A program made the position numbers and the translations under genes. From an uncultured Cryomorphaceae bacterium (lineage in GTDB: Bacteria; Bacteroidota; Bacteroidia; Flavobacteriales; Schleiferiaceae), in the NCBI GenBank assembly GCA_905182675.1, contig CAJJCK010000109.1, forward strand, positions 1 through 33,073: DNA of 33,073 nucleotides, in the 5' to 3' direction. Position 1 is the first letter of the stretch. Each line of letters begins with the position of its first letter. Shown in pieces: positions 17,315 to 33,073 of this stretch. The notes beneath the pieces were generated by a model. That model did not search any database. It was not told where the DNA came from and saw only the letters and a program-made list of their open reading frames with translations.

Positions 17315-17845
17315 TTAAATAAATCTTGAATCAGCCTCCATGACTTGGTGGCAACTATTACACGTCCTAAGATCATGACTCGCGTAATATTCTTTGAATT
17401 TTGGCAGGAACTCATTTTCAATGTCCTTGAGTTCAAAAAACGTCTCATGTAGCTTTTCGTTGCATGAATCACAGAACCACATTAAGCCATCCGTAAAGCC
17501 ACGCCCTTGACGTACACGTTCAATGACCAAGCCCAAACTTCCCTCGTGACGAATAGGACTGTGTGGTGTTTTTGCTGGAACGACCATCATATCTCCTGGC
17601 CCCAGTTCCAATGTTTCCGCCTTGCCATTTACCTGAACCTTAACCGTAATATGGCCTTCAAGTTGATAGAAAAATTCCTCCGTCTCGTTATAGTGGTAAT
17701 CCTTACGAGCATTTGGACCCGCAACCACCATCACGATGAAATCATCGCTGTCTGGCGTCAGGTTTTTATTAGCAACAGGAGGCTTGAGCAGATGTCTGTT
17801 CTCGTCCAGCCACTTTTGGAAATTAAAAGGCTTCAATAATGACAT
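17315..17845 (-). CDS. 3-hydroxyanthranilate 3,4-dioxygenase
   Basis: 176 aa single-cupin Fe(II) dioxygenase that opens the ring of 3-hydroxyanthranilate to give ACMS. Iron ligands H51, E57 (in DYHYNETEEFFYQLEG) and H95 (in KTPHSPIRH) are present, as are substrate-binding R47 and R99. The bacterial-type rubredoxin-like second metal site is intact: C125 and C128 in CDSC, C162 and C165 in CNSC. These positions match the structurally studied bacterial enzyme of the same length (NbaC type). First gene of the leftward unit, divergent from the aldehyde dehydrogenase across a 94-bp gap. Confidence 0.96.
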   Translation of the reverse strand: MSLLKPFNFQKWLDENRHLLKPPVANKNLTPDSDDFIVMVVAGPNARKDYHYNETEEFFYQLEGHITVKVQVNGKAETLELGPGDMMVVPAKTPHSPIRHEGSLGLVIERVRQGRGFTDGLMWFCDSCNEKLHETFFELKDIENEFLPKFKEYYASHDLRTCNSCHQVMEADSRFI

Positions 17846-17939
17846 GAGTGTTGAGTTTAAAGCGACAAGTTAGGGAAATTCGTGGTTGATGTGCAGGCAG
17901 TGTTTGGCTTGCGTATCTTCGTAGGAACAGATTGACCTT
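17846..17939. promoter_or_regulatory. Divergent control region of the kynurenine-pathway genes
   Basis: The 94-bp gap between the two divergent pathway units must hold both promoters. No exact TAnnTTTG box is visible; the closest matches are TATCTTCG on the plus strand (about 17916-17923) and TAACTTGT on the minus strand. No clear operator palindrome is seen. Confidence 0.4.
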
Positions 17940-19379
17940 ATGAAGATTCTCAACTATATAAATGGAGTGTTACAAGCTCCAGTCAACAACAAGTATTTAG
18001 ACAATACAAATCCCGCTACAGGGGAAATCTACGGGAACATTCCTCGGAGTGATGCTGAAGATGTGGAGGCAGCCGTTATGGCAGCAAAAAAGGCCTTTCC
18101 TTCGTGGAGCGCGCTCTCTGCGGGGCAACGTTCAAATTGGCTTTTAAAAATTGCACAGGCTATTGAAGATCGCATGGATGAGCTCGCTTTAGCCGAAAGT
18201 GTGGATAATGGGAAACCCCTTTCTCTCGCTAAGGCCGTAGACATTCCGCGAGCTCGCGACAATTTCAAGTTTTACGCAACTGCCGTTTTACACGACGCCT
18301 ATGAAACCCATGACATGGGTGCAGATGGATTCAACTACACGCTACGTCAACCTATTGGTGTCGCAGGTTGTATTTCTCCATGGAATTTACCGCTCTACCT
18401 CTTTAGCTGGAAAATAGCTCCAGCTTTAGCCTCTGGAAATACGGTGGTGGCAAAGCCATCTGAGGTCACACCTGCGACGGCTTATTTACTTAGTGAAATA
18501 CTACGTGATATAGACTTCCCAAAAGGCGTACTTAATATTGTCCATGGACTAGGTGGAGAAGTGGGAGCGTCTATTGTAGAACACCCAGATACTCAAGTTA
18601 TTTCCTTCACTGGAGGGACAGAAACAGGAAAAGCTATTTCCAAGGTGGCTGCGCCGATGTTTAAAAAACTTAGCCTAGAATTAGGGGGGAAAAATGCCAA
18701 TGTGATTTTTAACGATTGTGATTTTGATGAGGCCGTAAAAACCAGCGTGAGATCTTCCTTTTCTAACCAAGGCCAAATATGCCTTTGCGGTTCTAGAATT
18801 TACGTCCAGCGTGGCATCTATGATAAATTTAAAGCTGCTTTCCTTTCTCGCGTTGCAGGATTGACAGTTGCAGATCCCTTATCACAAACCTCAAGAATGG
18901 GAGCTATAGTAAGTAAGGATCATTTTGAGAAGGTGCTCTCTTATATTGAATTAGCAAGGGAAGAGGGAGGAACAATACTCGCTGGAGGGCATGCAGTTAA
19001 ATTAGAGGGACGGTGCGAAAATGGCTACTTTATTGCCCCTACCGTCTTTGAGAATTTACCCATAGGTTGCCGCACAAATCAAGAAGAGATCTTTGGACCC
19101 GTAGTAACACTAACTCCTTTCGACACGGAAGAAGAAGCGTTATTACTTGCGAATGGGACTGTTTATGGACTTGCCTCGACAGTATGGACAACAAACCTGC
19201 AAACGGCGCATAGAATGGCTGCAGGATTGCATGCTGGTATTATTTGGGTGAACTGTTGGTTAAACCGCGATCTCAGAACACCTTTTGGAGGTGTTAAACA
19301 GAGTGGCGTTGGTCGTGAAGGTGGCTTTGAAGCTCTTAGATTCTTTACTGAGCCTAAAAATATTTGTATCAAATTATAA
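17940..19379 (+). CDS. 2-aminomuconate 6-semialdehyde dehydrogenase (aldehyde dehydrogenase family)
   Basis: 479 aa NAD-dependent aldehyde dehydrogenase. Catalytic residues: C281 in NQGQICLCGSR, E247 in LELGGKNAN and N149 in SPWNLP; the Rossmann motif FTGGTETG is at 223-230. The NQGQICLCGSR context and the C-terminal WVNCWLNRDLRTPFGG are typical of the 2-amino-/2-hydroxymuconate semialdehyde dehydrogenases (NbaE, AMSDH). It would oxidise the product of ACMSD to 2-aminomuconate. ATG start. The 4-oxalocrotonate decarboxylase gene follows 7 bp after its stop. A 2-hydroxymuconate semialdehyde dehydrogenase is the alternative by sequence; neighbours favour the amino form. Confidence 0.92.
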   Translation: MKILNYINGVLQAPVNNKYLDNTNPATGEIYGNIPRSDAEDVEAAVMAAKKAFPSWSALSAGQRSNWLLKIAQAIEDRMDELALAESVDNGKPLSLAKAVDIPRARDNFKFYATAVLHDAYETHDMGADGFNYTLRQPIGVAGCISPWNLPLYLFSWKIAPALASGNTVVAKPSEVTPATAYLLSEILRDIDFPKGVLNIVHGLGGEVGASIVEHPDTQVISFTGGTETGKAISKVAAPMFKKLSLELGGKNANVIFNDCDFDEAVKTSVRSSFSNQGQICLCGSRIYVQRGIYDKFKAAFLSRVAGLTVADPLSQTSRMGAIVSKDHFEKVLSYIELAREEGGTILAGGHAVKLEGRCENGYFIAPTVFENLPIGCRTNQEEIFGPVVTLTPFDTEEEALLLANGTVYGLASTVWTTNLQTAHRMAAGLHAGIIWVNCWLNRDLRTPFGGVKQSGVGREGGFEALRFFTEPKNICIKL

Positions 19380-19386
19380 TTAGACC

Positions 19387-20151
19387 ATGAGTACAATATC
19401 AGAAAAGGCTAATAGCCTTCACAACAGTGCGAGAACACAGAAACCTAGAGGCCAGTTTTCTAACTCAGAAGAGTATACTCTAGTGGACGCCTATAAAGTG
19501 CAGCATGCGCTCATTCAACGTAGAATTGAAGAAGGTTTTCCATTGATTGGTGTGAAAATGGGTTTTACTTCGAAGGCAAAGATGACACAGATGGGAGTTG
19601 ATGATATGATCATAGGCCAATTAACGGCTGACATGACCATCCATCGAGATCAACCATTTCAAAAGAAACTATTTATTCACCCTCGCGCTGAGCCCGAAAT
19701 CGCCTTCAGACTGTCTGAAGACATCATCGGACCTTTGACCGTAGACCAGCTCCACCTTTATATTGATGGCGTGGCAGCAGCAATTGAAGTCATTGACTCG
19801 CGATACGATAATTTTAAATTCTCTTTAGAAGATGTAGTGGCAGACAACTGCAGTTCATCTGCCTATGCGATAGGAGATTGGTGCGAAGTTCCATTGGGGT
19901 TAAATGGCTTAGACATGACCATGACCTTTGATGGAGCAATAGCCGCACAAGGAAATAGTGACGCTATTTTAGATAATCCGTTTGAAGCTTTAGCCGCAGC
20001 TACAAGACTTGCATCAGAATATGGAATTGCGTTGAAGTCTGGAATGGTAGTTCTCGCGGGAGCATCTACAGCAGCGCATTTTATCCAAGAATCCTCTAAC
20101 GTTACTCTTGATGTAGACGGCTTAGGCGTGGTTTCATTCAGTGTCGTATAA
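19387..20151 (+). CDS. 4-oxalocrotonate decarboxylase (2-keto-4-pentenoate hydratase/decarboxylase family)
   Basis: 254 aa of the MhpD/DmpH superfamily. Metal-binding acids E102 and E104 lie in HPRAEPEIAF and E134 in AAIEVIDSRY. The segment GVKMGFTSKAKMTQMGV (55-71) and the SLEDVVADNCSSS stretch look like the decarboxylase branch (XylI, DmpH, NbaG) rather than the hydratase (DmpE, MhpD), which usually has KIGLTS followed by a different sequence. It would turn 4-oxalocrotonate (from deamination of 2-aminomuconate) into 2-oxopent-4-enoate. Decarboxylase and hydratase are close paralogues and only the former is seen here; the deaminase, hydratase and aldolase are missing from the window. Confidence 0.86.
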   Translation: MSTISEKANSLHNSARTQKPRGQFSNSEEYTLVDAYKVQHALIQRRIEEGFPLIGVKMGFTSKAKMTQMGVDDMIIGQLTADMTIHRDQPFQKKLFIHPRAEPEIAFRLSEDIIGPLTVDQLHLYIDGVAAAIEVIDSRYDNFKFSLEDVVADNCSSSAYAIGDWCEVPLGLNGLDMTMTFDGAIAAQGNSDAILDNPFEALAAATRLASEYGIALKSGMVVLAGASTAAHFIQESSNVTLDVDGLGVVSFSVV

Positions 20152-20155
20152 AAAA

Positions 20156-20188
20156 AGCAAGCCGCTTCGGGGTACGAAGCGGCTTGCT
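20156..20188 (-). terminator. Strong hairpin terminator facing the leftward genes
   Basis: A perfect 14-bp stem (AGCAAGCCGCTTCG with CGAAGCGGCTTGCT) and a 5-base loop. The T-run (TTTTTT) is on the minus strand only; on the plus strand the hairpin is followed by TGAACAAAACC. It therefore best terminates transcription of the leftward genes starting at 22256, although it sits only 4 bp after the rightward decarboxylase stop. Confidence 0.88.
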
Positions 20189-20299
20189 GAACAAAACCAT
20201 GTTGCGTCAAGTGAAATTAACCATTTACACTCTATCTAAAAAGACGCTGCTTATACAATGTCAAATCTTATGCCAAAGAAGGGTAAAGAGATGTTAATT

Positions 20300-20887
20300 C
20301 TATAGTTCAACACCAAGGCTGACAAGTATTTGTGATCGCTCGTAGCTCAGTGGAATGTCGTTCCAGGTTCCCGTGTGGTCCGTAAAACTACTGTAGTAGG
20401 TAACGTCAACGCTGACTTTCCATAAATCAATCCCTAACGATGCATTATAGCCCGCCGTTGGTGTGTCAAATGTATTATTGAATGCGTTGTTACTTATTGT
20501 CCCTTGATAATGCACCCCGCCTTCTGCTCGAGCAAATTTCAACAGACGTATTCCTATCCCTGCATCTAGTTGAAGGTATTTTTGGTCAAATCGCTCGTAA
20601 AACAAATCATTGTTGCCATCGTTACCCTCCAAAAAATGAGTGTTTTTCGCATAAAAAAGCGACCCAGACGTGTAAAGCTGATCGCCTAAATATTGTCTCC
20701 CGAAAACGCCTATATGATATCCATTATCCGTAGTCTCTCCTTCAAAAATCTCCTGTGCGGATGCTGAAGCGACATCTAACCCAATGGCATTAAGCTCATA
20801 ATTCAAGCCTGTTCGTACTCCCCATTTACTCTGTCCTGTAGCTGAAACTGTTAGCACAAACGAAGCCAATAATATTATGTTTTTCAT
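20300..20887 (-). CDS. Outer-membrane beta-barrel-like protein, unassigned
   Basis: 195 aa with a signal peptide (1-19, ending SATGQ). The rest alternates hydrophobic and polar residues in short aromatic-rich strands (YHIGVFGRQYLG, LYTSGSLFYAKN, YLQLDAGIGIRLL, AGYNASLGIDLW, VSVDVTYYSSF) and ends QILVSLGVEL, an outer-membrane barrel style C terminus. About eight to ten strands would fit. This resembles the small OmpA-like/PorT-like barrels common in Bacteroidota, but I recognise no specific family. It starts 25 bp after the membrane propeller gene and ends before a strong leftward terminator, so the two are very likely co-transcribed. Confidence 0.72.
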   Translation of the reverse strand: MKNIILLASFVLTVSATGQSKWGVRTGLNYELNAIGLDVASASAQEIFEGETTDNGYHIGVFGRQYLGDQLYTSGSLFYAKNTHFLEGNDGNNDLFYERFDQKYLQLDAGIGIRLLKFARAEGGVHYQGTISNNAFNNTFDTPTAGYNASLGIDLWKVSVDVTYYSSFTDHTGTWNDIPLSYERSQILVSLGVEL

Positions 20888-20912
20888 AGAACTCTTTTCT
20901 TTTGTCCTATGA

Positions 20913-22256
20913 CTAAGGCAGTAATTGTGCCAATTGATCCTGAATCTGAGGATTAATTACATAGACCACTTGTCGCTTATCCGTTGGAGATTTCTCACGA
21001 AGAACGATCTCTACTTCGAAAATTCGTAATCCCAATCCGTTTAATTCCTTTAGAAATATGCTGCGTTGACGACGCTGAACCTCCCAGCTTTTTTTTTGAA
21101 CATTTAAAATACTGTTTAAGTCATCTGCGAGTATGGGACCGCTCAAGAGCTGGCGCAGTAAGTTAGTTTGTACTGTACTAAAGTAGCTTTCGGTAGCCTT
21201 CATTTTCGCTATCTTTCCATATAATCTTTGCCACGAGATTGTCGTTAGAAAAACGATCACCATAAGTGCTAATCCTAAAAACGCAATACGCAAAGATCTG
21301 TCTCTGGTTGAGGTAAATAAAGTTACTTGACCTCTATTCTGGCTTTGACCCGTCAAATACTCAAAACTATATCCTATGGGAAGAACATCACTGATTTTTG
21401 GTATGAGCAAAGTATACTCATTTAACGAATACATGCAATTAAGACTACTCATAAGACCTGTTTGATTGTATAACAACCCGTTTTTCAAACCCCTATCAAT
21501 GACAGTATTCCTATAAAAATCAATCTCCCATGCCCAGTTATTACTCATTACTAAAAGCGTAGTATCAGTCATTCGATGCATCTTAAAAAGCTCGACTCCT
21601 TTGTTAAAAGCAACATTCGTATTCCCTTGTTTTGACCAGGTGTGAGTTAGAAAGTCATAAGCAAACAATACACCGTTACGCGTTGTATAAAGCACTTCAT
21701 GTTGTCTATCATAAAAGCACAAGGGAACTATTCGATTTCCTCCTTCAGGTATATTAACAGAAAAAGGTGCGTTGGACATAAAGTTCCACTCCCTTCTTAC
21801 TTCAGAAAAATAGGTCAATAAATTATTTTCAAGCCAAAAACCATAACCACCAAAAGAGAAAATAGTGTCGTTCCTCTGAAATTGATAAGCATCAAAATTA
21901 TACCCTTGATAGAAAGTTCGATCTTGACGGTCAATCCTATTATTGACTGTATCAATTTCAAACACTTGGCCGGATCCAGAAAAAGTAGCCAACAACAATC
22001 CATTCGTTAAAAACAGATGACCTTTTTTACCTACAAGAGCATTGCCTTTGTCGTAATTAATGATAAAGCGTTGTAATGTGTCTATATGATCCTTGAAATA
22101 TGCGAGGTGCTCACCCGTAACCATGGATAAAACGTGAATACTACTATCAACAGATGAGCTCCACGAGACCGTCCCCTTTATTTCTTTAGCGTCAGCATGG
22201 CCTAAGCAACATAATGACAGCAATCCTAAAATAAGTGATTTATGTTTTATAAACAT
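20913..22256 (-). CDS. Membrane-anchored periplasmic propeller protein with a cytoplasmic tail, possible one-component regulator
   Basis: 447 aa from the ATG at 22256 (a GTG at 22274 is also in frame, but the ATG starts directly at the signal sequence, MFIKHKSLILGLLSLCCLG). The next ~300 residues are beta-rich with repeated blade-like units (HLFLTNGLLLATFSGSG, TIFSFGGYGFWLENN, VLYTTRNGVLFAYDF), as in Kelch-type propellers. One membrane segment (about 323-341) follows. The ~100-residue cytoplasmic tail has LLSGPILADDLNSILNVQ, then RRQRS, then REKSPTDKRQVVYVI. The last part resembles the wing of winged-helix DNA-binding domains. I infer a transmembrane transcription regulator; the family is not named from memory and DNA binding is unproven. 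Confidence 0.7.
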   Translation of the reverse strand: MFIKHKSLILGLLSLCCLGHADAKEIKGTVSWSSSVDSSIHVLSMVTGEHLAYFKDHIDTLQRFIINYDKGNALVGKKGHLFLTNGLLLATFSGSGQVFEIDTVNNRIDRQDRTFYQGYNFDAYQFQRNDTIFSFGGYGFWLENNLLTYFSEVRREWNFMSNAPFSVNIPEGGNRIVPLCFYDRQHEVLYTTRNGVLFAYDFLTHTWSKQGNTNVAFNKGVELFKMHRMTDTTLLVMSNNWAWEIDFYRNTVIDRGLKNGLLYNQTGLMSSLNCMYSLNEYTLLIPKISDVLPIGYSFEYLTGQSQNRGQVTLFTSTRDRSLRIAFLGLALMVIVFLTTISWQRLYGKIAKMKATESYFSTVQTNLLRQLLSGPILADDLNSILNVQKKSWEVQRRQRSIFLKELNGLGLRIFEVEIVLREKSPTDKRQVVYVINPQIQDQLAQLLP

Positions 22257-22342
22257 GTTACTGTATGTTATCACAAATAAGTTCTACGTAAAAATACGTA
22301 AAAATCCGATCTGCAAATGACCAGTAAATTTAGAGCTCCTGT

Positions 22343-22376
22343 AAAGCCTAGAATCCTAAAAAGGACTCTTGGCTTT
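22343..22376. terminator. Imperfect hairpin after the diheme operon
   Basis: A 15-bp stem with two mismatches (AAAGCCTAGAATCCT with AGGACTCTTGGCTTT) around an AAAA loop, 20 bp past the stop of the second diheme gene. The T-run is better on the plus strand (GGCTTTTTTA); on the minus strand only three T follow, so termination in the operon direction may be incomplete. Confidence 0.6.
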
Positions 22377-22396
22377 TTTATTCCTGTTATAAAGAA

Positions 22397-23362
22397 TTAA
22401 AGTGCCTCCATAAAACTTTGGAGGTCGGAGAGCTGAGATGTCGAAAGCCCAAGCGGTTGAATCAGTAGCGACTGATAATCATGTAATGTCCCACCGGCAT
22501 TGTATTGAAGTAGCACATCCTCTAATGTTGCAACAGAGCCATCATGCATGAAAGGTGCTGTTAGCGCTGCATTTCGCAAAGAGGGCACTTTGAAGGTATA
22601 GAAGTCTGAAGAATCTAGTGTAAGCTGACCGCGGCCGTAATCACCGTCTAACATGGAGGTGCCATTGTTATGAAAGGAATAGTCCGTAAATAGTGGCCCC
22701 GAATGACATTTAGAGCAGTTTGCCGCTCCATAAAATAATTCCATACCTCTTTTAGCAGATGGAGTTATCGCATTATTGTCTCCAGAAATGTATGCATCTA
22801 TATCAGCATCCTTATAAATTAATGTCCGCTCGTATTGTGCAATAGAACGCGTTATAGTATAAGCGGTGGCAGAATCATTAAAAGCTTGTAGGAATAGTTT
22901 TTTGTAGGTGGAGTCCTGGTTTAACCTGTTTGCCAGTAGCACCATGTTAAACGCCATTTCGTTGTGTTCTTGAATGGGTACTAAAATTTGCATTTCCAAA
23001 GTGGGGACACCGCCTTCCCGCATGAAATAGGGCTGGTACCCTATGTTGAGTAAGGAAGGGGAATTTCGTACTCCCAGACGGCCTTCTACTCCTGGAGAAA
23101 CAGTAAGATTATCTGCAAAAGCAAATTGAGATTTATGGCATGATGCGCAGCTTATAGAAGAATCTATACTGAGTATAGGGTCTTCAAACAATTGCCTGCC
23201 AAGGTTAATTTTGGATGCATCAGGTTGGTTGTCTTGAGGATAAGACATCTCTGGCCAGTTTGACAATGTGCCCGGAACTTCTGGATTGTTTCTTTCACAA
23301 GACGATATCAAGACTATAAGTCCTAGAGCAGCGAGTTTAAAACGGTGAGCTGAAGCGTTCAT
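22397..23362 (-). CDS. Diheme cytochrome c peroxidase/MauG-MbnH family lipoprotein, second copy
   Basis: 321 aa with lipoprotein signal (LIVLISSC, C22). Two haem sites: C72-AS-C75-H76 and C216-SK-C219-H220, with the family motif VPSLRNAALTAPFMHDG before the C-terminal helix. Members either reduce H2O2 (CcpA) or use it for oxidation of a partner protein (MauG on methylamine dehydrogenase, MbnH on MbnP). The segment that normally reads FWDGR between the haems, carrying the electron-hopping Trp (W94 of CcpA, W93 of MauG), is YFMREGG here, with M114 in that place. Its start lies 26 bp inside the preceding diheme gene, so translation is probably coupled. Confidence 0.9.
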   Translation of the reverse strand: MNASAHRFKLAALGLIVLISSCERNNPEVPGTLSNWPEMSYPQDNQPDASKINLGRQLFEDPILSIDSSISCASCHKSQFAFADNLTVSPGVEGRLGVRNSPSLLNIGYQPYFMREGGVPTLEMQILVPIQEHNEMAFNMVLLANRLNQDSTYKKLFLQAFNDSATAYTITRSIAQYERTLIYKDADIDAYISGDNNAITPSAKRGMELFYGAANCSKCHSGPLFTDYSFHNNGTSMLDGDYGRGQLTLDSSDFYTFKVPSLRNAALTAPFMHDGSVATLEDVLLQYNAGGTLHDYQSLLIQPLGLSTSQLSDLQSFMEAL

Positions 23363-24401
23363 CTTGAATAAGTTCTTGGTCTGTCAATGTATGTAAAAAA
23401 GAGACTAGGTCACTTATATCTTGCTCATTCAACATTAATCCAGTTCCCATGGTCATTTGTAACGCCTGATCAAGTGTCGCACTGGATTGTAGTCCCGTAT
23501 TATAGTGTTGCACCACCTCTTCGAGCGTTTGGAAAATTCCGTCATGCATATACGGAGGTGTAAGTGCGATGTTTCTAAGGGTGGGTGTTTTCATTAACCC
23601 TATTTCAGCAGAGTCTGCGGTTACGATAAAGCGTCCCAGGTCTGAGTTTAGTGAATCCGTACCGTTGTTCATGTAGGTAGGGGAATCAAACGTCTTGCCA
23701 CCATGACAGTGCCCACAATCTGCGCCACTATCATCCGGAAAGAAGGGGTTGTATTCTCCAAAAAACAATTCACGACCGCGGTCCTCTTGTTCTGTAAGCA
23801 GCGCAGATCCATTAAGGTATTGGTCGTACTTACTCCTGTACGAGACAATGCTGTTCATAAACTGCTCTAACGCCAGTGAGACGAGATAGGAGCTTGGTTC
23901 CGCTGTTCCAAAGGCACGTAAAAACTGATGTGTATACAAGGTGTCTTGAGCGAGTTTTTCTATTACATTTTCCAATGTCTCGTCCATTTCTATGGCATCT
24001 TGTATAGGCATTAAGCTTTGATCTCTCAATTTTTCAACGCGTCCATCCCAGAAGTATCCATTCGTATTCCAAAGCATGTTAACCGCGCTCATGGCCTGTC
24101 GATGACCCATGTCTCCATGGATTCCAGTGCTAAATTTTGCGGTATCCGAAAATGCATTTACCTGCTTGTGACAAGAGGAACATGACATTGAATTATCTCC
24201 ACTAAGTCGATTCTCGTAAAACAGCATCCTTCCTAGCTTTACGCCTTGATTGGTTAGCTTGTTATCTAAGGGAATATCTGGAGTAGAGAGAGCTCCGTAT
24301 TCAAGTGAATAAGGAGTTTGGTCAACGACCGGTTCCGGTGGTGTTTTGGTACAACTCCACATTATTAATACTACAGCAATATTGAACCCTAAAACACGCA
24401 T
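23337..24401 (-). CDS. Diheme cytochrome c peroxidase/MauG-MbnH family lipoprotein, first copy
   Basis: 354 aa with a short lipoprotein signal (LIMWSC, C17). Haem sites: C74-SS-C77-H78 and C229-GH-C232-H233. The inter-haem Trp is kept as W118 in GYFWDGRVEKL, followed by LMPIQDAIEMD; TPTLRNIALTPPYMHDG precedes the C-terminal helices. The axial ligand of the second haem (Met in CcpA, Tyr in MauG/MbnH) cannot be fixed by eye; Y284, M285 and Y300 are candidates. Its ATG overlaps the TAA of the MbnP-like gene by one base (TAATG). That adjacency makes MbnH-type oxidation of the MbnP-like protein more likely than simple peroxide removal. Confidence 0.91.
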   Translation of the reverse strand: MRVLGFNIAVVLIMWSCTKTPPEPVVDQTPYSLEYGALSTPDIPLDNKLTNQGVKLGRMLFYENRLSGDNSMSCSSCHKQVNAFSDTAKFSTGIHGDMGHRQAMSAVNMLWNTNGYFWDGRVEKLRDQSLMPIQDAIEMDETLENVIEKLAQDTLYTHQFLRAFGTAEPSSYLVSLALEQFMNSIVSYRSKYDQYLNGSALLTEQEDRGRELFFGEYNPFFPDDSGADCGHCHGGKTFDSPTYMNNGTDSLNSDLGRFIVTADSAEIGLMKTPTLRNIALTPPYMHDGIFQTLEEVVQHYNTGLQSSATLDQALQMTMGTGLMLNEQDISDLVSFLHTLTDQELIQDERFSSPF

Positions 24402-25369
24402 TATCTTACAACAACGCGTTCAGTGCTCATGCTTTTACCCTGTCTTAATGTCACAATATATATACCTGTTGTCTTCATTACGAAACGTTCGTTCCCGTGT
24501 TCTGAAGTACGGTGTTCAATTATTTGGCCTAATATATTTCTCACCTCTATCTGTGAACCAAATGGTACTGAAACCCAGAAGCTTCCATTCGTTGGGTTTG
24601 GATATATGGAGTAATCTAAAGACTTTAATTCCACTTCACTTAACGCGTCATTACCCTCTGACGAGGAGAATACGTGATTGTTCATGTTTGCTAACGCTTG
24701 ACGCGCAGAACCTGTTTCTCCATGAGAAATCACTCCTTGACCGACCGCTACTCCTCGAGTAAGCGCATCATAGTTTGCCACTAATTTAATCTCTAACGTA
24801 TCTGTACCCACAGCAACTCCTGAAGTTGATATCGTTTGCATCGCATAGTTTACATCGCCTAGGCCATGCAATTCAAAGCCTTGGTTAAAGGACGATGACC
24901 CCATACCTTCAGCAGCGATAAATCTATATCCCGCTGACCAACCCCAATGCATGGAAGGAGATTTAGGCGCTAGAGGGCTCTGTGGTGAATACGTGGATGG
25001 ATCCAAGTGATTTAAGCTCGTGCCCACTCCAATAGCGAATCTTACAGCGGTAATGCTGTCAAGACTCTGGCTCCCTAAATAAAGGTTTGTTGAAGCAGCG
25101 TCTAGCGCATCAATAAGCAATACTTCGGGGTAGTTAAATACCGAGTCATTGTCATAGATCACTTGTATATCTCCCATGTAATATTCTAAGCGTGAAAACT
25201 TGACCTGGTTACCTAGGTTATTCACACCTATGGAAGAAGTAGTTAAGGGCGCAGATGCCATGGTATGATCTATGGTCAATACCAACTCTTTTGTGGACTG
25301 CGAAAAGAGGGATACACTTAATGCTAGGGCAAAAAAACTGTAGGCAAATTTTTTCATGATAGATGTCAT
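24401..25369 (-). CDS. MbnP-like copper-binding protein with T9SS C-terminal sorting domain
   Basis: 322 aa (an in-frame ATG at 25357 would drop four residues). Signal peptide ends near LFSQS (24). The MbnP-like domain spans about 28-210, with VKFSRLEYYMGDIQV, AVRFAIGVGTSLNHLDP, the hallmark SMHWGWSAGYRF (139-150; W142, W144, H141) and FELHGLG. Known MbnP proteins bind copper after the diheme partner MbnH oxidises a Trp to kynurenine. Residues ~254-322 (YSIYPNPTNGSFWVSV to VVVR) are a T9SS type A sorting domain, so this version is secreted or attached at the cell surface, whereas the two diheme genes behind it encode lipoproteins. First gene of a three-gene operon. Confidence 0.88.
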   Translation of the reverse strand: MTSIMKKFAYSFFALALSVSLFSQSTKELVLTIDHTMASAPLTTSSIGVNNLGNQVKFSRLEYYMGDIQVIYDNDSVFNYPEVLLIDALDAASTNLYLGSQSLDSITAVRFAIGVGTSLNHLDPSTYSPQSPLAPKSPSMHWGWSAGYRFIAAEGMGSSSFNQGFELHGLGDVNYAMQTISTSGVAVGTDTLEIKLVANYDALTRGVAVGQGVISHGETGSARQALANMNNHVFSSSEGNDALSEVELKSLDYSIYPNPTNGSFWVSVPFGSQIEVRNILGQIIEHRTSEHGNERFVMKTTGIYIVTLRQGKSMSTERVVVR

Positions 25370-25473
25370 ATTTTTAGCAAGTTAACCATTTACTGGTGTG
25401 AGTTGTTCATACGTAGAAAATTTAAAACAATAAACCTATGGCCTTGTTGTACCTGATCTAATCAACGCGTTAT

Positions 25474-25881
25474 ATGGAACCACGAGGCACCTTGTTAAAA
25501 AAGATAAGACCAGAAATTAAGTCCGTTAATACGAAGGCGCAATCTCTGGACATAGAAACTTTCCAAAACGAGACTTTAAGACCGATTTTGAAATTTCAAA
25601 ACGATCTACTTCTAGAAGTTTATCGACAATACATTGCTCAATACAAGAATGCTTTTTACGAATTACACGAGCTACAGAAACCTGATTACATTAATCATTC
25701 TCTAAAAGCAAACCATACCTTTAGAAACCTCATGATTGGCACGGTCATAGGACTGTTTTCCGTAGAGGAATACCTTTATTATGCAGGGCAATCTTCCGTG
25801 ATTAATAAACGTATCATTTCGATGCTGGTCCAGCGTTACCAAGACCAAATGCATCTTTTAGATCAAAGACTCTCCATTTGA
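25474..25881 (+). CDS. Small helical protein of unknown function
   Basis: 135 aa, no signal, mostly alpha-helical. It resembles a Bacteroidota family of ~140-aa proteins with the pattern ETFQNETLRPILKFQNDLLL, a middle helix pair, then FRNLMIGTVIGLFSVEEYLYY and a C-terminal helix. Some relatives are labelled glyoxalase in databases, but I see no vicinal-oxygen-chelate metal motif and do not support that name. ATG at 25474, divergent from the MbnP operon by 104 bp. Its last 24 bases overlap the 3' end of the convergent DUF2461 gene. Confidence 0.75.
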   Translation: MEPRGTLLKKIRPEIKSVNTKAQSLDIETFQNETLRPILKFQNDLLLEVYRQYIAQYKNAFYELHELQKPDYINHSLKANHTFRNLMIGTVIGLFSVEEYLYYAGQSSVINKRIISMLVQRYQDQMHLLDQRLSI

Positions 25882-26529
25882 GTCGGTCGTCAGCACGTCT
25901 GACATAAAATCCACAAATGGTCGAATATCCTGTACAGCACTGCTAATACGCTCAGAGAAAGCACTGTTTTCCACTTCGGAGTTATTAAAATGAATCATAA
26001 ACAAGAATTGCTTCTTTCGAATCAAATCAATATCTGGGTGGTCCTTGTCAAAAGCTCTTGGTGCTGATTTTAACTCATCACCTGTTAATTCTCCCCAAGT
26101 GTTTTTAACTGATTTTTGGCTGATAATTTCTCTGAACTCGTCACCTGAAACAGCCAATTCCTGGCGAATGCGCAACAGATCTTTCGGTTCAGGCGCCCAA
26201 AAACCACATGCTAAGAAACTATCCTCTGGAGAGATGTGTAGGTAATAACTCCCCCTATTGTTTGGCTGTGCACGACGAAAAGCAATACCGAAATTGGTTT
26301 TATAGGGTGTTTTGTTTTTTGAAAAACGGACATCTCTATAAATGCGCATTAGCTTCCACCCTTCCAGCGAATCATGAACACTAATTTGATTAAATAACTG
26401 GACACAAAATTCCTTGACTTCCGTTTCAAGCTCTTTGAAGTGAGGCTTTTGCTTTTCAAACCAATCTCTAGTATTATTCTCTTTGAGACTGCTGAAAAAC
26501 TGAAAAACTTTTGGATTGATACTATTCAT
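25858..26529 (-). CDS. DUF2461 domain protein
   Basis: 223 aa, full length for the DUF2461 (TIGR02453) family. Typical motifs: FFSSLKENNTRDWFEKQKP near the N terminus (12-30), RIYRDVRFSKNKTPYKTNFG (64-82 region), GSYYLHISPEDSFLACGFW and the KKQFLFMIHF segment near the C terminus. No signal or membrane segment; presumably cytoplasmic. The family's function is unknown. It is 14 bp or more downstream of the DUF2490 gene on the same strand and may share its transcript; it converges on the small helical protein gene. Confidence 0.9.
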   Translation of the reverse strand: MNSINPKVFQFFSSLKENNTRDWFEKQKPHFKELETEVKEFCVQLFNQISVHDSLEGWKLMRIYRDVRFSKNKTPYKTNFGIAFRRAQPNNRGSYYLHISPEDSFLACGFWAPEPKDLLRIRQELAVSGDEFREIISQKSVKNTWGELTGDELKSAPRAFDKDHPDIDLIRKKQFLFMIHFNNSEVENSAFSERISSAVQDIRPFVDFMSDVLTTDSNGESLI

Positions 26530-27218: not shown

Positions 27219-27397
27219 AATGAGTAATCTCTCCATTAAAGAATTCAGGACTTACTTTTAAGATTGTCCCGTGCTATTTTCCTTATTTCAAACATTTTAT
27301 CGGGGGTAGAGTTCAAAATAAAGCTCCATCACCGGATAAATTGGCATCACCTGTTGTCAGAAGCGCGAGCACATTCTTTAGAGCAGTAGAATAACCA

Positions 27398-27853
27398 TTA
27401 ACAACAACCTGAACCTGGGGTACAATCAGGTTGAATCGTCTGTTTTGGTTTTCTCTCTGGTATACCACATTTGTCTTTCGCCAAGCAATCCGTTTGCAAG
27501 GCTGTAAGAATGAATTGGTAACCATCGTGGGACAATCCGTACACTTCGATTGTTGCACCTTGGTACTCTACTCGCAATTCAGCCTCTCCCCTTAGTTGTA
27601 ATTGCTGGGTGGAAGCTTCTAGAATTACTTTAAGTTTTGGCAACGTCAACCTGTGGTCGTAATCTTCCGCAGTATACATTTGAAGGTTGACCAGTGACTC
27701 CTTGCGCATGACTCCACCGCAATCCAAGAAAAAACGATCGAGCTGACCAACCTCCGTAATATGAAAATGAGCAGGGACTGCAGTCCCATTAGGCAAGGCA
27801 AAAGATAATTCGTTGGTATAATCTAATTGCGAATAAAATTCCTGTAAAGTCAT
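27398..27853 (-). CDS. DUF6428-like protein with a cysteine-rich tail
   Basis: 151 aa. The core (residues 1-120) has HFHITEVGQLDRFFLDCGG, KESLVNLQMY and YDHRLTLPKLKVIL, matching the DUF6428 family often found beside arsenic-resistance genes. The last 30 residues hold five cysteines: C123, C128, C144, C150 and C151, ending CTPGSGCC, a tail that looks suited to binding a thiophilic metal or metalloid. No arsenic genes accompany it here. A -7-like box TAACTTTG (minus, 27878-27871) is 18 bp before the ATG. The 160 bp between its stop and the DUF2490 gene hold no gene that I can support. Confidence 0.75.
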   Translation of the reverse strand: MTLQEFYSQLDYTNELSFALPNGTAVPAHFHITEVGQLDRFFLDCGGVMRKESLVNLQMYTAEDYDHRLTLPKLKVILEASTQQLQLRGEAELRVEYQGATIEVYGLSHDGYQFILTALQTDCLAKDKCGIPERKPKQTIQPDCTPGSGCC

Positions 27854-27870
27854 CTTTGATTATTTGGCTC

Positions 27871-27878
27871 CAAAGTTA
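27871..27878 (-). promoter_or_regulatory. Candidate -7 box for the DUF6428-like gene
   Basis: TAACTTTG on the minus strand is an exact TAnnTTTG match, 18 bp before the ATG; no matching TTG is found at the right distance upstream. Confidence 0.3.
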
Positions 27879-28009
27879 CATTCTATCTCGACATTGAACC
27901 GTAATGGTAGTGTGTTGTGAAAACTTAACATTGAGTTTACACGACCTTATCTTTCCCGTAACAGAAAAATAACAAAAAAATTCACCTTTGCATTAAAATT
28001 ACTCATTTC

Positions 28010-29218
28010 ATGAATTCAAGAACGAGTATTGCGTTTGCCATCATTATACTTTGCAGTTTTAAAATGTCAGCACAGCAAGGCGTAAATGAAATAAGTTTCG
28101 GGAAAGGTCTATTAAACTATGTTGCTGCAGACAGCAGCTTTAGTGTAAAATTTGCACCAAGATTTCAAGTACGTTATTACGGAACGAGTGATTTTTCCGA
28201 CGATGGCCTAGCACCTGTAGATCATGACTTTTTGGTACGTCGTTCAAGATTTAAGTTTGACGGATGGGTTGTACACCCAAGCATTGGATACAAAATGGAA
28301 TTTGGTTTGTCAAATAACGATATGTCAGGTGCTAATGCGTTCACAAAAAATTCTCCGCGATACATTCTTGATGCCGTCATTAAATGGAAATTCGCACCGG
28401 GCTTTGAACTCTGGGCTGGCCAAACAAAACTTCCTGGCAATGTTGAGCGTGTAATTTCTTCTGCCAACTTACAGCTGGTAGATCGTTCCTTACTGAACAG
28501 TAAGTTTAATATTGATCGCGACTTGGGGATACAGTTGCGTCACACCACGAAACTTGGTGGACAATTCATTTCCAAAGAAAAATTTGCGATCTCTCAAGGA
28601 GAAGGTAGAAATATTGCCACAGGTAATGAAGGTGGTCTTCAATACACAGGACGTGTAGAATTATTCCCTCTAGGTGGCTTTACCAAAAAAGGTGAATACA
28701 TGGGCTCCTCTACGGTTAGAGAGGAAAAGCTAAAAATAATGGCGGCTTACACTTACGACTTCAATGCAGATGCCTCAAAAACAAGGTCCAACATGGGAGA
28801 CTACATGTTTCTTATGGATGGCTCGCTACATCAAACGAATATTACTACGCAGTTTATTGATCTAGTCATGAAATACGAAGGGTTTTCTTTGATGGCGGAA
28901 TATGCAGATCGTAGCGCTACGAACCCTATTGCAGTGGAATTGGACGGAACCGAAACTGGAGACATCGTCACTGTAGGAAGTGCTTTTAATATGGCAGTAG
29001 GTTACTTTATTTCAGAAAAAATAGAAGTTGCAGGTCGTTATACAACGCTCAACTATGCTGACGTAACAGGTACTTCTCCTGCAACCATGTACACTCTGGG
29101 TCTGAATAAATTTGTTGTTGGTCACAAACTAAAGGTGCAAGGTGATATTAGCTACTCAACTAAAAATGGAGAAAGCGACGCAATCATTTTCAGAACAGGA
29201 TTTGAATTGCATTTCTAA
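28010..29218 (+). CDS. Phosphate-selective porin O/P family protein
   Basis: 402 aa with signal peptide (1-21, ending KMSAQ). The OprO/OprP-type barrel is recognisable from VKFAPRFQVRYYG, FLVRRSRFKFDGWV, GYKMEFGLSN, the loop ELWAGQTKLPGNVERV, DRDLGIQLRH and the end FRTGFELHF with the terminal Phe of outer-membrane proteins. This family passes phosphate or polyphosphate across the outer membrane. The PiT phosphate transporter gene follows 55 bp later, so together they form a phosphate route across both membranes. Upstream, CACCTTTG (27983-27990) is a near match to the -7 box. No recognisable Pho-type operator is seen. Confidence 0.9.
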   Translation: MNSRTSIAFAIIILCSFKMSAQQGVNEISFGKGLLNYVAADSSFSVKFAPRFQVRYYGTSDFSDDGLAPVDHDFLVRRSRFKFDGWVVHPSIGYKMEFGLSNNDMSGANAFTKNSPRYILDAVIKWKFAPGFELWAGQTKLPGNVERVISSANLQLVDRSLLNSKFNIDRDLGIQLRHTTKLGGQFISKEKFAISQGEGRNIATGNEGGLQYTGRVELFPLGGFTKKGEYMGSSTVREEKLKIMAAYTYDFNADASKTRSNMGDYMFLMDGSLHQTNITTQFIDLVMKYEGFSLMAEYADRSATNPIAVELDGTETGDIVTVGSAFNMAVGYFISEKIEVAGRYTTLNYADVTGTSPATMYTLGLNKFVVGHKLKVQGDISYSTKNGESDAIIFRTGFELHF

Positions 29219-29273
29219 CTTAACCTTCAGATAACATTGCAGGTATAAATTAGCCCTACGAAACACAAACACT

Positions 29274-31517
29274 ATGGACAGTATATTTTACTTGATGATC
29301 TTCGCACTGGCAATTTTAGCAGTTGCTGATCTTATTGTAGGTGTCAGCAATGATGCCGTGAACTTCTTGAATTCAGCGATTGGCTCTAAAGTCATTTCAT
29401 TCAGGAATATTTTGATTATTGCCAGTTTAGGCGTTTTTGTCGGTGCTGTATTCTCTAGCGGCATGATGGAGGTAGCACGAAAAGGGATCTTTGTGCCCTC
29501 TAAATTCTATTTTGATGAGATCATGTTCATTTTCATGGCGGTCATGATTGGAGATATTCTGTTATTAGACTTCTTCAATACCCTAGGCATGCCTACATCG
29601 ACTACTGTATCTATCGTTTTTAACTTACTTGGTGCTGCTGTTGTAATGGCATTGATAAAAATTGGCCTGTCAGATACCGAAACCGCAGCTGATCTATCCA
29701 ATTACATCAACACTGAAAAGGCGAAACAGATCATCTCAGGTATTCTTCTTTCTGTTGTCATCTCCTTTACTGTGGGTATGATTGTACAATGGGTCTCCAG
29801 ATTAGTATTCAGCTTCCAGTACGAGAAAAAAGTAAAAAACTTTGGTTTCATTTTCGCAGGCATCTGTTTAACTGCAATCGGGTACTTTATATTCTTCAAG
29901 GGTCTTAAAGGCACACCTTTCTATGGCGATATAAAAGGCTTTCTCGCTCAGAATACTCTTTTAGTCATTGCATCGATGCTGGCATTTTGGACACTTTTAA
30001 TGTTTATCATTGACAAAGTATTTAAGATCAATGTACTTATTATCGTAATAGGTCTTGGTACTTTCGGATTGGCGTTAGCCTTTGCAGGAAATGATCTGGT
30101 TAACTTTATTGGGGTACCTATGGCGGCTTACCACAGCTACGAAGCCTGGTCCGTATCCGGTATACCTGCCTCAGAGTTCTCGATGGAGATATTATCAGAA
30201 AAGGTTCCTACAGAGCCAGTTTTACTCTTCATTGCCGGAAGCATCATGGTGGTAACCTTGGCTTTCTCCAAGAAAGCACGCACCGTCTCAGATACCTCTA
30301 TAGATTTATCTCGTCAGGGTGATGGAAGCGAACGTTTCCAACCTAATTTTTTATCTAGAAGCATTGTAAAAGGGTCAACTAAACTCGTAAACGCCATCAG
30401 TACTATTTTACCGTCTAGTGTTCAAGCAAGAATCACAAGCAGTTTCCAGACACCTGCACTTGAAATTTCTGAGGAAAAGGCTAAGGCGCTTCCAGCCTTC
30501 GATATGATTCGTGCATCTATCAATCTTGCCGTTGCAGGAATTTTAATTTCCATTGCAACGAGTATGAAGCTTCCGTTATCTACTACCTATGTCACCTTTA
30601 TGGTAGCAATGGGTACATCACTTGCGGATCGCGCTTGGGGTAGAGAAAGTGCCGTTTATCGCGTAGCAGGTGTTGTGAATGTAATAGGTGGATGGTTCTT
30701 TACAGCGTTCAGTGCGTTTACATTCGCAGGTATCTTAACGTACATAATTTACATGGGACGCGGCGCTGCCATAGCAATTCTATTACTATTCGCCGCTGTT
30801 CTGGTTGTTCGGAATTATTTGAGCCACAAGAAGAAATCTAATGCACAATCGGATCATACTTCATTAAAAAAATCTGCCAGTCATACGGTACAGGAGATTA
30901 TTGAAGAAAGCGCTGATAATGTTGCTAAATCGATGTATCGTACTACTCGGATTTTCAATGGTGTTGTAGATGGGCTGTCAAATCAAGATGCTGGCGCATT
31001 GAAAAAAATGCGCAAGCGGATAGGTACATTCGAAGAAGAAGTAGAATCCTTGCGAAATCATTTATTCTACTTTATCAAGAACCTTGACGAAACGAGCGTT
31101 CGTGGTTCTAATTTCTATATCATGGTTCTCGCGAATTTGACTGATGTGGTACAATCCTTAGAGTTTATTGCAAAAAAGAGCTATAAGCACATCGATAATA
31201 ATCACAAGGCATTAAGTAAAAGTCAGATTAGTGATTTGAATGAAATCCAAAGTATGTTTAACGGGATACTTGTTTCGGTTGAGCAAGCATTTACATCACA
31301 GAACTTTAGTGATTTAAGTACTTGTCTAGAAAAAGAAGATTCAATTCTTGCATTGATATCAGAAAAAATTGATGTGCAAATAGCAAGAACTCGAAAGGAA
31401 GAAGTCAGCCCAAAGAATACGACACTTTACTTTAACCTTCTTCTAGAAACTAAAGATTTGGTCAAGGCTGTAATGCGATTGGTTGAGGAGTACCATAACA
31501 GTAGTTCAAACAGCTAA
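29274..31517 (+). CDS. Inorganic phosphate transporter, PiT family, fused to a PhoU-like domain
   Basis: 747 aa. The membrane part has both PiT signatures: GVSNDAVNFLNSAIGSK (23-39) and FAGNDLVNFIGVPMAAY (from residue 270), plus about ten further hydrophobic segments, ending near residue 520. A soluble C-terminal part (about 537-740, HTVQEIIEESADNVAKS, IFNGVVDGLS, then long charged helices) resembles the PhoU/DUF47 helical bundle, which in other bacteria is encoded separately. PiT proteins import phosphate as a metal-phosphate complex with protons or sodium. The fusion is common in Bacteroidota. ATG start; co-oriented with the phosphate porin. It converges on the unassigned gene 36 bp away, with no clear terminator. 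Confidence 0.94.
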   Translation: MDSIFYLMIFALAILAVADLIVGVSNDAVNFLNSAIGSKVISFRNILIIASLGVFVGAVFSSGMMEVARKGIFVPSKFYFDEIMFIFMAVMIGDILLLDFFNTLGMPTSTTVSIVFNLLGAAVVMALIKIGLSDTETAADLSNYINTEKAKQIISGILLSVVISFTVGMIVQWVSRLVFSFQYEKKVKNFGFIFAGICLTAIGYFIFFKGLKGTPFYGDIKGFLAQNTLLVIASMLAFWTLLMFIIDKVFKINVLIIVIGLGTFGLALAFAGNDLVNFIGVPMAAYHSYEAWSVSGIPASEFSMEILSEKVPTEPVLLFIAGSIMVVTLAFSKKARTVSDTSIDLSRQGDGSERFQPNFLSRSIVKGSTKLVNAISTILPSSVQARITSSFQTPALEISEEKAKALPAFDMIRASINLAVAGILISIATSMKLPLSTTYVTFMVAMGTSLADRAWGRESAVYRVAGVVNVIGGWFFTAFSAFTFAGILTYIIYMGRGAAIAILLLFAAVLVVRNYLSHKKKSNAQSDHTSLKKSASHTVQEIIEESADNVAKSMYRTTRIFNGVVDGLSNQDAGALKKMRKRIGTFEEEVESLRNHLFYFIKNLDETSVRGSNFYIMVLANLTDVVQSLEFIAKKSYKHIDNNHKALSKSQISDLNEIQSMFNGILVSVEQAFTSQNFSDLSTCLEKEDSILALISEKIDVQIARTRKEEVSPKNTTLYFNLLLETKDLVKAVMRLVEEYHNSSSNS

Positions 31518-31553
31518 GTTTTAAATTCAATAATCTTTAACTTATAAATAAAA

Positions 31554-32495
31554 CTACCGTTGTAGTTGATTTAAGTCCGCTCTATTTTCTTTGAGTATAG
31601 ATATATTGAAAGCCTCGACCGCCTGCTCAATACGTTTTTTCCGGATGGATTCGCGGACTAAAATCGCTGGTCCTGTAATTAATACAATTGGGTACAGGGG
31701 AACAGTAACTATACCCCAAAAGTTATTCCAACCCCGAATTCTCTGCGCCGCGGAAAAATTTGCATAGGCTTCAAAACTTTGATCCATGGCAATCAATTTG
31801 GCCTCTTTCGCTGAAAGCGTATCATTTTGATAAATCACGCCCCTTCTTTTATATACCTTCATCTGGTCAATTTTGCGACTAGTCCGTGCTTCATTCAAAG
31901 GCTCCATATTGTTCGTTGCCAATGTTTCGAGCTTTCTATTAACGATGATCACATCTGGGTGGTTCAACTCCTGCGGTAGATCATTAGAAGTCGTGTCCTC
32001 GATTTCTGGTTCAACTTTAATAGAGACGTCCGTAGAACCCTGTTCTTCATTAAGGACCGTCGTCTGCGGTAATTCTGTGACATATGAGACCAAGGTGTCT
32101 TTATTATTATTTGACTTAGTGGATAACAAAATGCTAGGTTGTATCTCAGTTAGGGAGGGCGCAATTATATCTAATGTCTTTGGCAAAGAACCCCCATTGC
32201 GACGAATATAATTTCTAAGATTTCTCAACTCCTCTTCACTAAGATCCCAGTTGACAAGAGCGGGGTATGTACGAAAGCACTTGTTATAATGCTGGTCATA
32301 CTTGAAGTTCATTTTATACCCCTCGTAAATGATGGTCAATTGATGGAATTCAGCCGGTGTAATAGGGACAGTAATTCTAGCCTCTTTATAAAGTACTGAA
32401 GTAATGTTACCAAAATTATCATTATCAATTTTCAATTCCTGAGCAGCAGCTAAGGAACAAATCAATACAAGTAGGAGTGTTATGTAACTTTTCAT
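31554..32495 (-). CDS. Exported protein of unknown function
   Basis: 313 aa from the ATG at 32495; a TTG at 32513 would put six residues before the signal peptide (MKSYITLLLVLICSLAAAQ). Numbered from the ATG, residues ~20-105 are a compact region (ITVPITPAEFHQLTIIYEGY, KYDQHYNKCFRTYPALVNWD, LRNLRNYIRRNGG). A long low-complexity acidic/Thr-rich linker follows (about 110-215), then YKRRGVIYQNDTLSAKEAKL. A hydrophobic segment (about 259-279, WGIVTVPLYPIVLITGPAIL) is followed by a basic helix. I do not recognise the family. It is the last gene before the tRNA remnant. It may be anchored to the inner membrane by the C-terminal segment. Confidence 0.75.
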   Translation of the reverse strand: MKSYITLLLVLICSLAAAQELKIDNDNFGNITSVLYKEARITVPITPAEFHQLTIIYEGYKMNFKYDQHYNKCFRTYPALVNWDLSEEELRNLRNYIRRNGGSLPKTLDIIAPSLTEIQPSILLSTKSNNNKDTLVSYVTELPQTTVLNEEQGSTDVSIKVEPEIEDTTSNDLPQELNHPDVIIVNRKLETLATNNMEPLNEARTSRKIDQMKVYKRRGVIYQNDTLSAKEAKLIAMDQSFEAYANFSAAQRIRGWNNFWGIVTVPLYPIVLITGPAILVRESIRKKRIEQAVEAFNISILKENRADLNQLQR

Positions 32496-32699
32496 TTTTT
32501 TAAATCTATACAAATGAAGTTAGTTGTTCATTGATGTTTTAACGTGAATGGTAATCTCAAATAAAGGGGTAATGTTACTAATTTCAGTAAACGAAAAAAG
32601 ATTTTGACACGTATATGTTTCAGATATGAAACTTCTTGTATGTGTTATGAGCTACTATTTTGTTTTAGAAACTTGCAGGGACAAAATATCGAGAAAAAT
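32496..32699. other. Gene-free stretch between the last gene and the tRNA remnant
   Basis: About 200 bp with no credible open frame. It presumably carries the promoter of the exported-protein gene on the minus strand, but no exact TAnnTTTG box is seen. A short palindrome GTTTCA-GATA-TGAAAC lies at 32617-32632. Confidence 0.5.
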
Positions 32700-32725
32700 A
32701 AAACCCCACTGAAAAGTGAGGTTTT
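32700..32725 (-). terminator. Terminator of the former tRNA-Ala gene
   Basis: An 11-bp stem with one mismatch (AAAACCCCACT with AGTGAGGTTTT) and a GAAA loop. On the minus strand it is followed by TTTATTTTTC. It starts 7 bp past the 3' end of the tRNA remnant, where a tRNA terminator is expected. Confidence 0.75.
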
Positions 32726-32732
32726 AAACTTG

Positions 32733-32777
32733 TGGAGAAGATGGGAGTAGAACCCACGACCTCTTGACTGCCAGTCA
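32733..32777 (-). pseudogene. 3' part of a tRNA-Ala(GGC) gene, probable attachment-site remnant
   Basis: On the minus strand, this reads as the tRNA from the anticodon loop to the discriminator base: loop CTGGCAG (anticodon GGC), 3' anticodon strand TCAAG, variable loop AGGTC, T arm GTGGG-TTCTACT-CCCAT, acceptor CTTCTCC and A73. Position 70 is T, as required for the G3-U70 identity pair of tRNA-Ala. The 5' anticodon strand is TATGA instead of the pairing CTTGA, and the D arm and 5' acceptor are absent, so the gene is broken exactly at the anticodon stem. The T loop has T at position 57, normally a purine, suggesting decay. This is the classic scar of integration into a tRNA 3' end. Confidence 0.8.
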
Positions 32778-32912
32778 TAAACGAAAGACAAACAGCAGCA
32801 AACATCAATTCAATAAATAAAAAAAATTGTCTTTTTAAACTTGGCTAGTTAAGAAACTCTAGAATCAAATCATAAATAGATATGTCTTTATAAAAGTTAT
32901 ATCCGATTCAAT

Positions 32913-32931
32913 GTGTCACATTTAGTGTCAC
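32913..32931 (+). repeat. Direct repeat GTGTCAC x2, 12-base period
   Basis: GTGTCAC at 32913-32919 and again at 32925-32931, separated by ATTTA. About 135 bp from the tRNA junction. Short direct repeats near attachment sites can be recombinase arm-type sites, but two 7-mers are weak evidence. Confidence 0.4.
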
Positions 32932-32978
32932 TTACTTCTGTGGGGTCTTTTTTATAATTGGTAAGAACAAAAAAAAAC

Positions 32979-33059
32979 TTAAACCCCTATAAAACAGGGG
33001 ATGTTCATTATAAATATATCATAAATAGCTATCACACCCCCTGTTTTATAGGGGTTTAA
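32979..33059. repeat. 26-bp inverted repeat with self-folding arms
   Basis: Arms at 32979-33004 and 33034-33059 pair with one mismatch across a 29-base AT-rich spacer. Each arm also folds alone: CCCCT-ATAAAAC-AGGGG on the left and CCCCT-GTTTTAT-AGGGG on the right (5-bp stems, 7-base loops). On the minus strand a run of ten or so T follows the left arm, so it could end leftward transcription; on the plus strand TTTCCTTTTTG follows the right arm. Confidence 0.85.
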
Positions 33060-33073
33060 TTTCCTTTTTGTTG

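What the first reader, a model, noticed from the sequence alone, without database searches (positions are those of the whole stretch)
32733..32777. tRNA-Ala(GGC) 3' remnant marks a probable integration junction
Sequence shows 45 bases of a leftward tRNA-Ala, anticodon loop to A73, joined to unrelated AT-rich DNA at the anticodon stem, with the tRNA's terminator behind it (32700-32725). Tyrosine recombinases often integrate at tRNA 3' ends; the element restores the tRNA at one end and leaves a 3' copy at the other. The terminator on the left means the element should extend to the right of 32777. The T-loop change at position 57 fits a copy released from selection.
Basis: partly seen in the sequence, partly recalled or inferred. 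Interest (0 to 1): 0.72.

Follow-up and report, generated by a model that had tools for sequence, protein, structure and literature searches.

The report
Displaced tRNA-Ala fragment at integration site
Near the end of this marine bacterial contig lies the back half of an alanine tRNA gene, cut at the spot where DNA-inserting enzymes split the same gene in sister species; it is very probably the scar of an inserted mobile element, a well-known kind of feature, but the element itself lies off the contig.

Summary
Window 32777-32733 (- strand) matches the last 45 bases of the genome's own tRNA-Ala(GGC) at 43/45. Similarity stops abruptly at T30 (9/29 upstream, near chance). The tRNA's terminator follows at 32700-32725. 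The intact gene lies on another contig (C146) with a homologous terminator.

In same-genus genomes the same gene is cut at the same word, TGACTGGCAGTCAA: two 5' halves run straight into tyrosine-recombinase genes, and several 3' fragments start at it. The fragment lies upstream of a block, in the orientation, where the closest relative (G011) has its intact tRNA-Ala. The intact copy keeps the ancestral upstream neighbours. This is the standard intact-gene-plus-displaced-3'-fragment geometry.

Not shown: the element. The window is the whole contig and ends 296 bp past the junction. That stretch has no integrase and no relative, and the contig needed to join fragment and intact gene is missing. 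The adjacent gene (31554-32513) normally follows tRNA-Pro(GGG), so the locus is also rearranged.

Verdict: ordinary kind of feature, new instance. [quoted passage not shown]

The parts
32733..32777 (-). 3' fragment of tRNA-Ala(GGC), anticodon stem to A73 (T30-A73), two T-loop substitutions
   Evidence: 43/45 to C146:3820-3864, 9/29 upstream of the break; no tRNA called
32764..32777 (-). crossover core word TGACTGGCAGTCAA (nearly palindromic anticodon stem-loop)
   Evidence: 5' halves in G002 and G005 end with it beside integrases; 3' fragments in G009, G002, G007 start at or within a few bases of it
32700..32725 (-). intrinsic terminator of the tRNA
   Evidence: homologous to the terminator behind the intact gene on C146; hairpin
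32778..33073 (.). AT-rich (28% GC) non-coding DNA joined to the fragment; putative right end of the element; contig ends here
   Evidence: no relative in 60 genomes beyond short chance matches; contig length 33073; GC
32966..33072 (.). imperfect 107-bp inverted repeat at the contig end
   Evidence: self-match on the opposite strand, 77%
31554..32513 (-). 319-aa gene without a Pfam match; orthologues follow tRNA-Pro(GGG) in relatives
27393..31518 (.). block (DUF6428 protein, porin O/P-like, PHO4 phosphate transporter) that lies on a different contig in the closest relative
17646..26529 (.). block colinear with G011 C5, where it is followed about 1 kb later by an intact tRNA-Ala in the same orientation as the remnant

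Best explanation
The 45 bases are the displaced 3' fragment of tRNA-Ala(GGC), left when a tyrosine-recombinase element integrated at the anticodon stem-loop of the gene. Strand exchange inside the core TGACTGGCAGTCAA would join the element's right end to the old 3' half, its terminator and the downstream DNA, which is what the window shows. The other end would rebuild an intact gene from the native 5' half and a 3' half carried by the element; the intact copy on C146 is the candidate. The fragment is no longer expressed and has begun to decay. SHOWN: the fragment, the sharp break at the core, the intact copy with a homologous terminator, and splitting at the same word beside integrases in sister genomes. 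INFERRED: that C146 and the window are two sides of one locus, that this element restored the 3' half, and that an element body lies or lay to the right of 32777.
For: 43/45 identity with a sharp edge. The same edge is used in sister genomes: 5' halves in G002 and G005 run directly into tyrosine-recombinase genes, and 3' fragments in G009, G007 and G002 start at or within a few bases of it. The remnant faces the same downstream block, in the same orientation, as the intact tRNA-Ala of the closest relative G011, while the intact gene here keeps the ancestral helicase and CotH side. The right flank is shared with no other genome. The intact gene is followed by a second 3' fragment, so the site has been used more than once. 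Anticodon-centred sites with a displaced 3' fragment are the commonest arrangement in the Islander survey (PMC4383910).
Against: No integrase is seen on the window or C146. The contig ends 296 bp beyond the junction, and the contig bridging to C146 is absent. The integrases caught in the act at this gene restore the 5' half, not the 3' half. The duplicated stretch includes the terminator and about 75 nt beyond, longer than a minimal att site. The ancestral genes 195-aa, porin and ammonium transporter would lie between the intact gene and the fragment, and the locus has been rearranged.
Confidence: 0.66

Rival explanations
1. Rearrangement scar: recombination between repeated tRNA or att sequences (site-specific or homologous) moved this segment and left a half tRNA at the breakpoint, without an element end at this place.
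For: The 319-aa gene belongs behind tRNA-Pro(GGG) in relatives. 27393-31518 comes from another locus. The tRNA-Pro is missing from its expected place on C43, and its other neighbour gene sits near tRNA-Phe on C226. The core is nearly palindromic, and inverted joins of two 3' halves are seen in G052.
Against: A plain rearrangement does not predict that the break falls on the integrase crossover word; recombination between two tRNA-Ala halves would restore tRNA sequence on the other side, but the right flank is not tRNA-like.
Confidence: 0.2
2. Ordinary decay: a duplicated tRNA-Ala plus terminator lost its 5' half by deletion, unrelated to integration.
For: Three copies of 3' half plus a similar terminator scaffold exist in this genome, which a tandem duplication history would also give; homology includes the terminator.
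Against: The edge coincides with the recombination word used in several sister genomes; only a minority of possible deletion end points would fall there.
Confidence: 0.1
3. Assembly chimera near a contig end of a metagenome-assembled genome.
For: The junction is 296 bp from the contig end, next to an inverted repeat, and the sequence is partly repeated on C146.
Against: The copy carries its own T-loop changes and a deletion in the terminator region, the longest exact word shared with C146 is 38 nt, and the break sits on a biological core.
Confidence: 0.04

Closest known systems
Genomic islands in tRNA genes, anticodon-centred ('A') sites with displaced 3' fragment (Islander, PMC4383910; Williams 2002)
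   Same: tRNA target, crossover at the anticodon stem-loop, displaced 3' fragment in the same orientation as an intact copy, integrases beside the same site in sister species.
   Different: No integrase or island body is visible for this fragment; the duplicated stretch extends through the terminator.
5'-half-restoring integrases (5' fragment class of Islander, 159 of 3919; pTN3-type in Thermococcales, PMC8371274)
   Same: The integrases found at this gene in G002 and G005 leave a 5' fragment, and in G005 the intact gene carries element-derived upstream DNA.
   Different: The window fragment is the 3' half, so it was not made by that polarity unless the palindromic core was used in reverse; no sequence relationship to pTN3 integrases was tested.
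Tycheposons and tRNA-bounded flexible islands of marine bacteria (PMC10872708)
   Same: Marine bacteria with small genomes, tRNA-bounded variable cargo, tyrosine recombinase.
   Different: No tycheposon gene modules were tested or seen here.

Membership tests
Genomic island in a tRNA gene (Islander definition) | Fragment of a tRNA gene ending or starting at a known sublocation (anticodon loop, T loop, 3' junction) | tested here: met
   Starts at T30, inside the anticodon stem; same word as in sister genomes
Genomic island in a tRNA gene (Islander definition) | Intact copy of the same tRNA gene in the same replicon, fragment downstream in the same orientation | tested here: inconclusive
   Intact copy present and gene order fits, but the bridging contig is missing
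Genomic island in a tRNA gene (Islander definition) | Integrase gene between intact gene and fragment | tested here: inconclusive
   None in the window or on C146; the interval is not assembled
Genomic island in a tRNA gene (Islander definition) | Relatives with an empty site | tested here: met
   G009 and G007 have CotH-like gene, tRNA-Ala and 195-aa gene adjacent; this shows empty sites for the gene, not for this exact junction
5'-half-restoring integrative element | Native 5' half left beside the integrase, intact gene with native 3' flank | tested here: not met
   The window carries the 3' half with a terminator; the 5'-restoring arrangement is met in G005 only
Tycheposon | tRNA at one border with the characteristic recombinase and replication modules | not tested
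   Element body not assembled

The most novel reading that the evidence does not exclude
The remnant is one product of a recombination system in these small-genome marine Schleiferiaceae whose nearly palindromic tRNA-Ala core works in both polarities (leaving 5' or 3' fragments, and inverted joins) and moves small gene cassettes between tRNA genes, with copies of the integrase gene's own 3' end marking cassette ends.
Probability: 0.1. Interest if true: 0.7.

Novelty: new member of a known kind. Interest (0 to 1): 0.33.

Why it matters
It pins an integration hotspot, tRNA-Ala(GGC), to a base-level crossover word in a genus of small-genome marine Flavobacteriales known mostly from MAGs, and helps explain gene-order turnover around that gene. 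The remnant itself is ordinary. [quoted passage not shown]

Tried and rejected
(1) Extending the contig: no overlapping contig, and the rest of the ammonium transporter gene that should bridge C146 and the window is missing from the bin. A scan of viral contigs for the junction found none; viral-contig hits to the intact gene word were tRNA clusters and one prophage-like contig with no visible link. (2) Homologues of the right flank in 60 genomes: only short chance matches. (3) The sequence preceding the 3' fragments in G009, G002 and G007 does not match the window's right flank. (4) Integrase or integrase 3'-end copies in the window or on C146: none. (5) Relatives of the integrase in viral contigs: none. 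(7) A functional small RNA was considered and dropped: no Rfam match, no conserved copy, decayed T-loop.

Full report
WHAT IS THERE. The window is the whole of contig C109 of a 1.64-Mb, 248-contig genome bin. Records of same-genus relatives bear Schleiferiaceae or Cryomorphaceae (marine Flavobacteriales) titles. On the minus strand, 32777-32733 matches bases T30 to A73 of tRNA-Ala(GGC) at 43/45; both differences are in the T-loop. The next 29 bases upstream agree at only 9 positions, so the break is sharp. The intact gene is at C146:3791-3865. Homology continues past the tRNA through the terminator for about 75 nt, and the longest exact shared word is 38 nt. The window copy is therefore a distinct, diverged locus and not an assembly echo of C146. 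No tRNA is called in the window.

THE BREAK POINT IS AN INTEGRASE SITE. In same-genus genomes the same gene is cut at the same place. In G002 (L041) and G005 (L044) the 5' half runs to TGACTGGCAGTCAA and then directly into element DNA with a tyrosine-recombinase gene. In G009, G007 (two loci) and G002, 3' fragments start at or within a few bases of the same word; the G002 and G007 fragments share the sequence preceding them, so they are not all independent. In G013, G004 and G006 contigs end inside the tRNA, which is expected if its halves are repeated. Empty sites exist: in G009 and G007 the CotH-like gene, tRNA-Ala and the 195-aa gene are adjacent.

POSITION. The ancestral order, seen in G001 and others, is helicase, CotH-like gene, tRNA-Ala, 195-aa gene, porin, ammonium transporter, then the genes found in window 22274 to 14331. 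In this genome C159 and C146 carry the two parts of a CotH-like gene and so very probably adjoin. They give helicase, CotH, kelch gene, intact tRNA-Ala, terminator, a 1.4-kb insert with a 299-aa gene, a second 3' fragment with terminator, 195-aa gene, porin, ammonium transporter, contig end. The closest relative, G011, has helicase, tRNA-Ala, a 268-aa gene, then the block equal to window 26529-17646. The window remnant thus faces the same downstream block, in the same orientation, as the intact tRNA of G011, while the intact tRNA here keeps the ancestral upstream side. If the missing contig joins them, the fragment lies downstream of the intact gene in direct orientation, which is the Islander configuration (PMC4383910). 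That join is inferred.

COMPLICATIONS. Between the remnant and the 26529 boundary lie a 319-aa gene and a block (27393-31518) that is on another contig in G011. Orthologues of the 319-aa gene lie just downstream of tRNA-Pro(GGG) in G009, G018, G020 and G021, and with one SPFH-domain gene between in G010. In this genome that tRNA-Pro is missing from its expected place on C43, and the SPFH gene sits near tRNA-Phe on C226. Genes have moved between tRNA loci, so a rearrangement explanation for the remnant is not excluded.

POLARITY. The integrases actually caught beside this gene restore the 5' half. In G005 the native 5' half is left with the integrase, and the intact tRNA with the native 3' flank carries upstream DNA matching G003 at 93% over 215 bp (tRNA included), with no other shared DNA. 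Such 5' restoration is rare: 159 of 3919 Islander islands, 'seldomly encountered in bacteria' (PMC8371274). The window fragment is a 3' fragment and needs the common 3'-restoring polarity, or the nearly palindromic core acting the other way round. The second view is speculative.

VERDICT. A real, well-placed integration scar of a common kind. Its element is not assembled, and its exact history is blurred by rearrangement.

Noticed in passing
L058:9657-14094 (G001), L108:9573-13926 (G014), L173:774-3470 (G024), L171:7612-8937 (G011), L057:687-1738 (G010): Tandem arrays of the last 70-90 bases of a tyrosine-recombinase gene (coding ..KQLDVEDLPEL-stop), all on one strand, separated by 0.6-1.4 kb of small cargo genes. 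In G001, G014 and G010 they lie upstream of tRNA-Ala, in G024 upstream of tRNA-Met. Integrases whose N-terminal parts are only about 45% identical share a nearly identical 3' end. This could be an integron-like array with the integrase's own 3' end as the recombination site, or plain tandem duplication.
   Followed up: partly
L044:616-1801 and L055:9073-11240 (G005); L060:8956-9170 (G003): Integrative element in tRNA-Ala(GGC) that leaves the native 5' half and restores the gene with its own 5' half and upstream DNA; it carries an RNase_T-family exonuclease gene beside the integrase and a GmrSD restriction gene near the other end.
   Followed up: partly
L008:5246-5344 (C146, same genome): A second tRNA-Ala 3' fragment whose 5' side is an inverted copy, giving a palindrome centred on the T-loop TTCGAA with a terminator on both sides.
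   Followed up: partly
L050:9734-9816 (G052): Two tRNA-Ala 3' halves joined head to head at the anticodon palindrome, as expected for an inverted join at the core.
   Followed up: no
window 32966-33072: 107-bp imperfect inverted repeat with near-perfect arms (AAACCCCTATAAAACAGGGG) exactly at the contig end.
   Followed up: partly
L194:7086-8307 (C226), L195 (C43), window 31554-32513: The SPFH-domain gene and the 319-aa gene, both behind tRNA-Pro(GGG) in G010, sit near tRNA-Phe and beside the tRNA-Ala fragment in this genome; tRNA-Pro(GGG) is not found on C43.
   Followed up: partly
L042:87-355, L048:1179-3451, L049:182-774: The 3' tRNA fragments of G002 and G007 are preceded by a recurring sequence with the palindrome GTTCGGAATATTCCGAAC; in G002 and G007 (L042, L049) they are followed by a gene that looks like a small nucleotidyltransferase of a toxin-antitoxin pair (the last reading by eye only).
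   Followed up: no
L045:8800-8910 (G012): A tRNA-Ala pseudogene with an insertion in the D-loop region, near repeats containing GGGGTTACGATTT.
   Followed up: no
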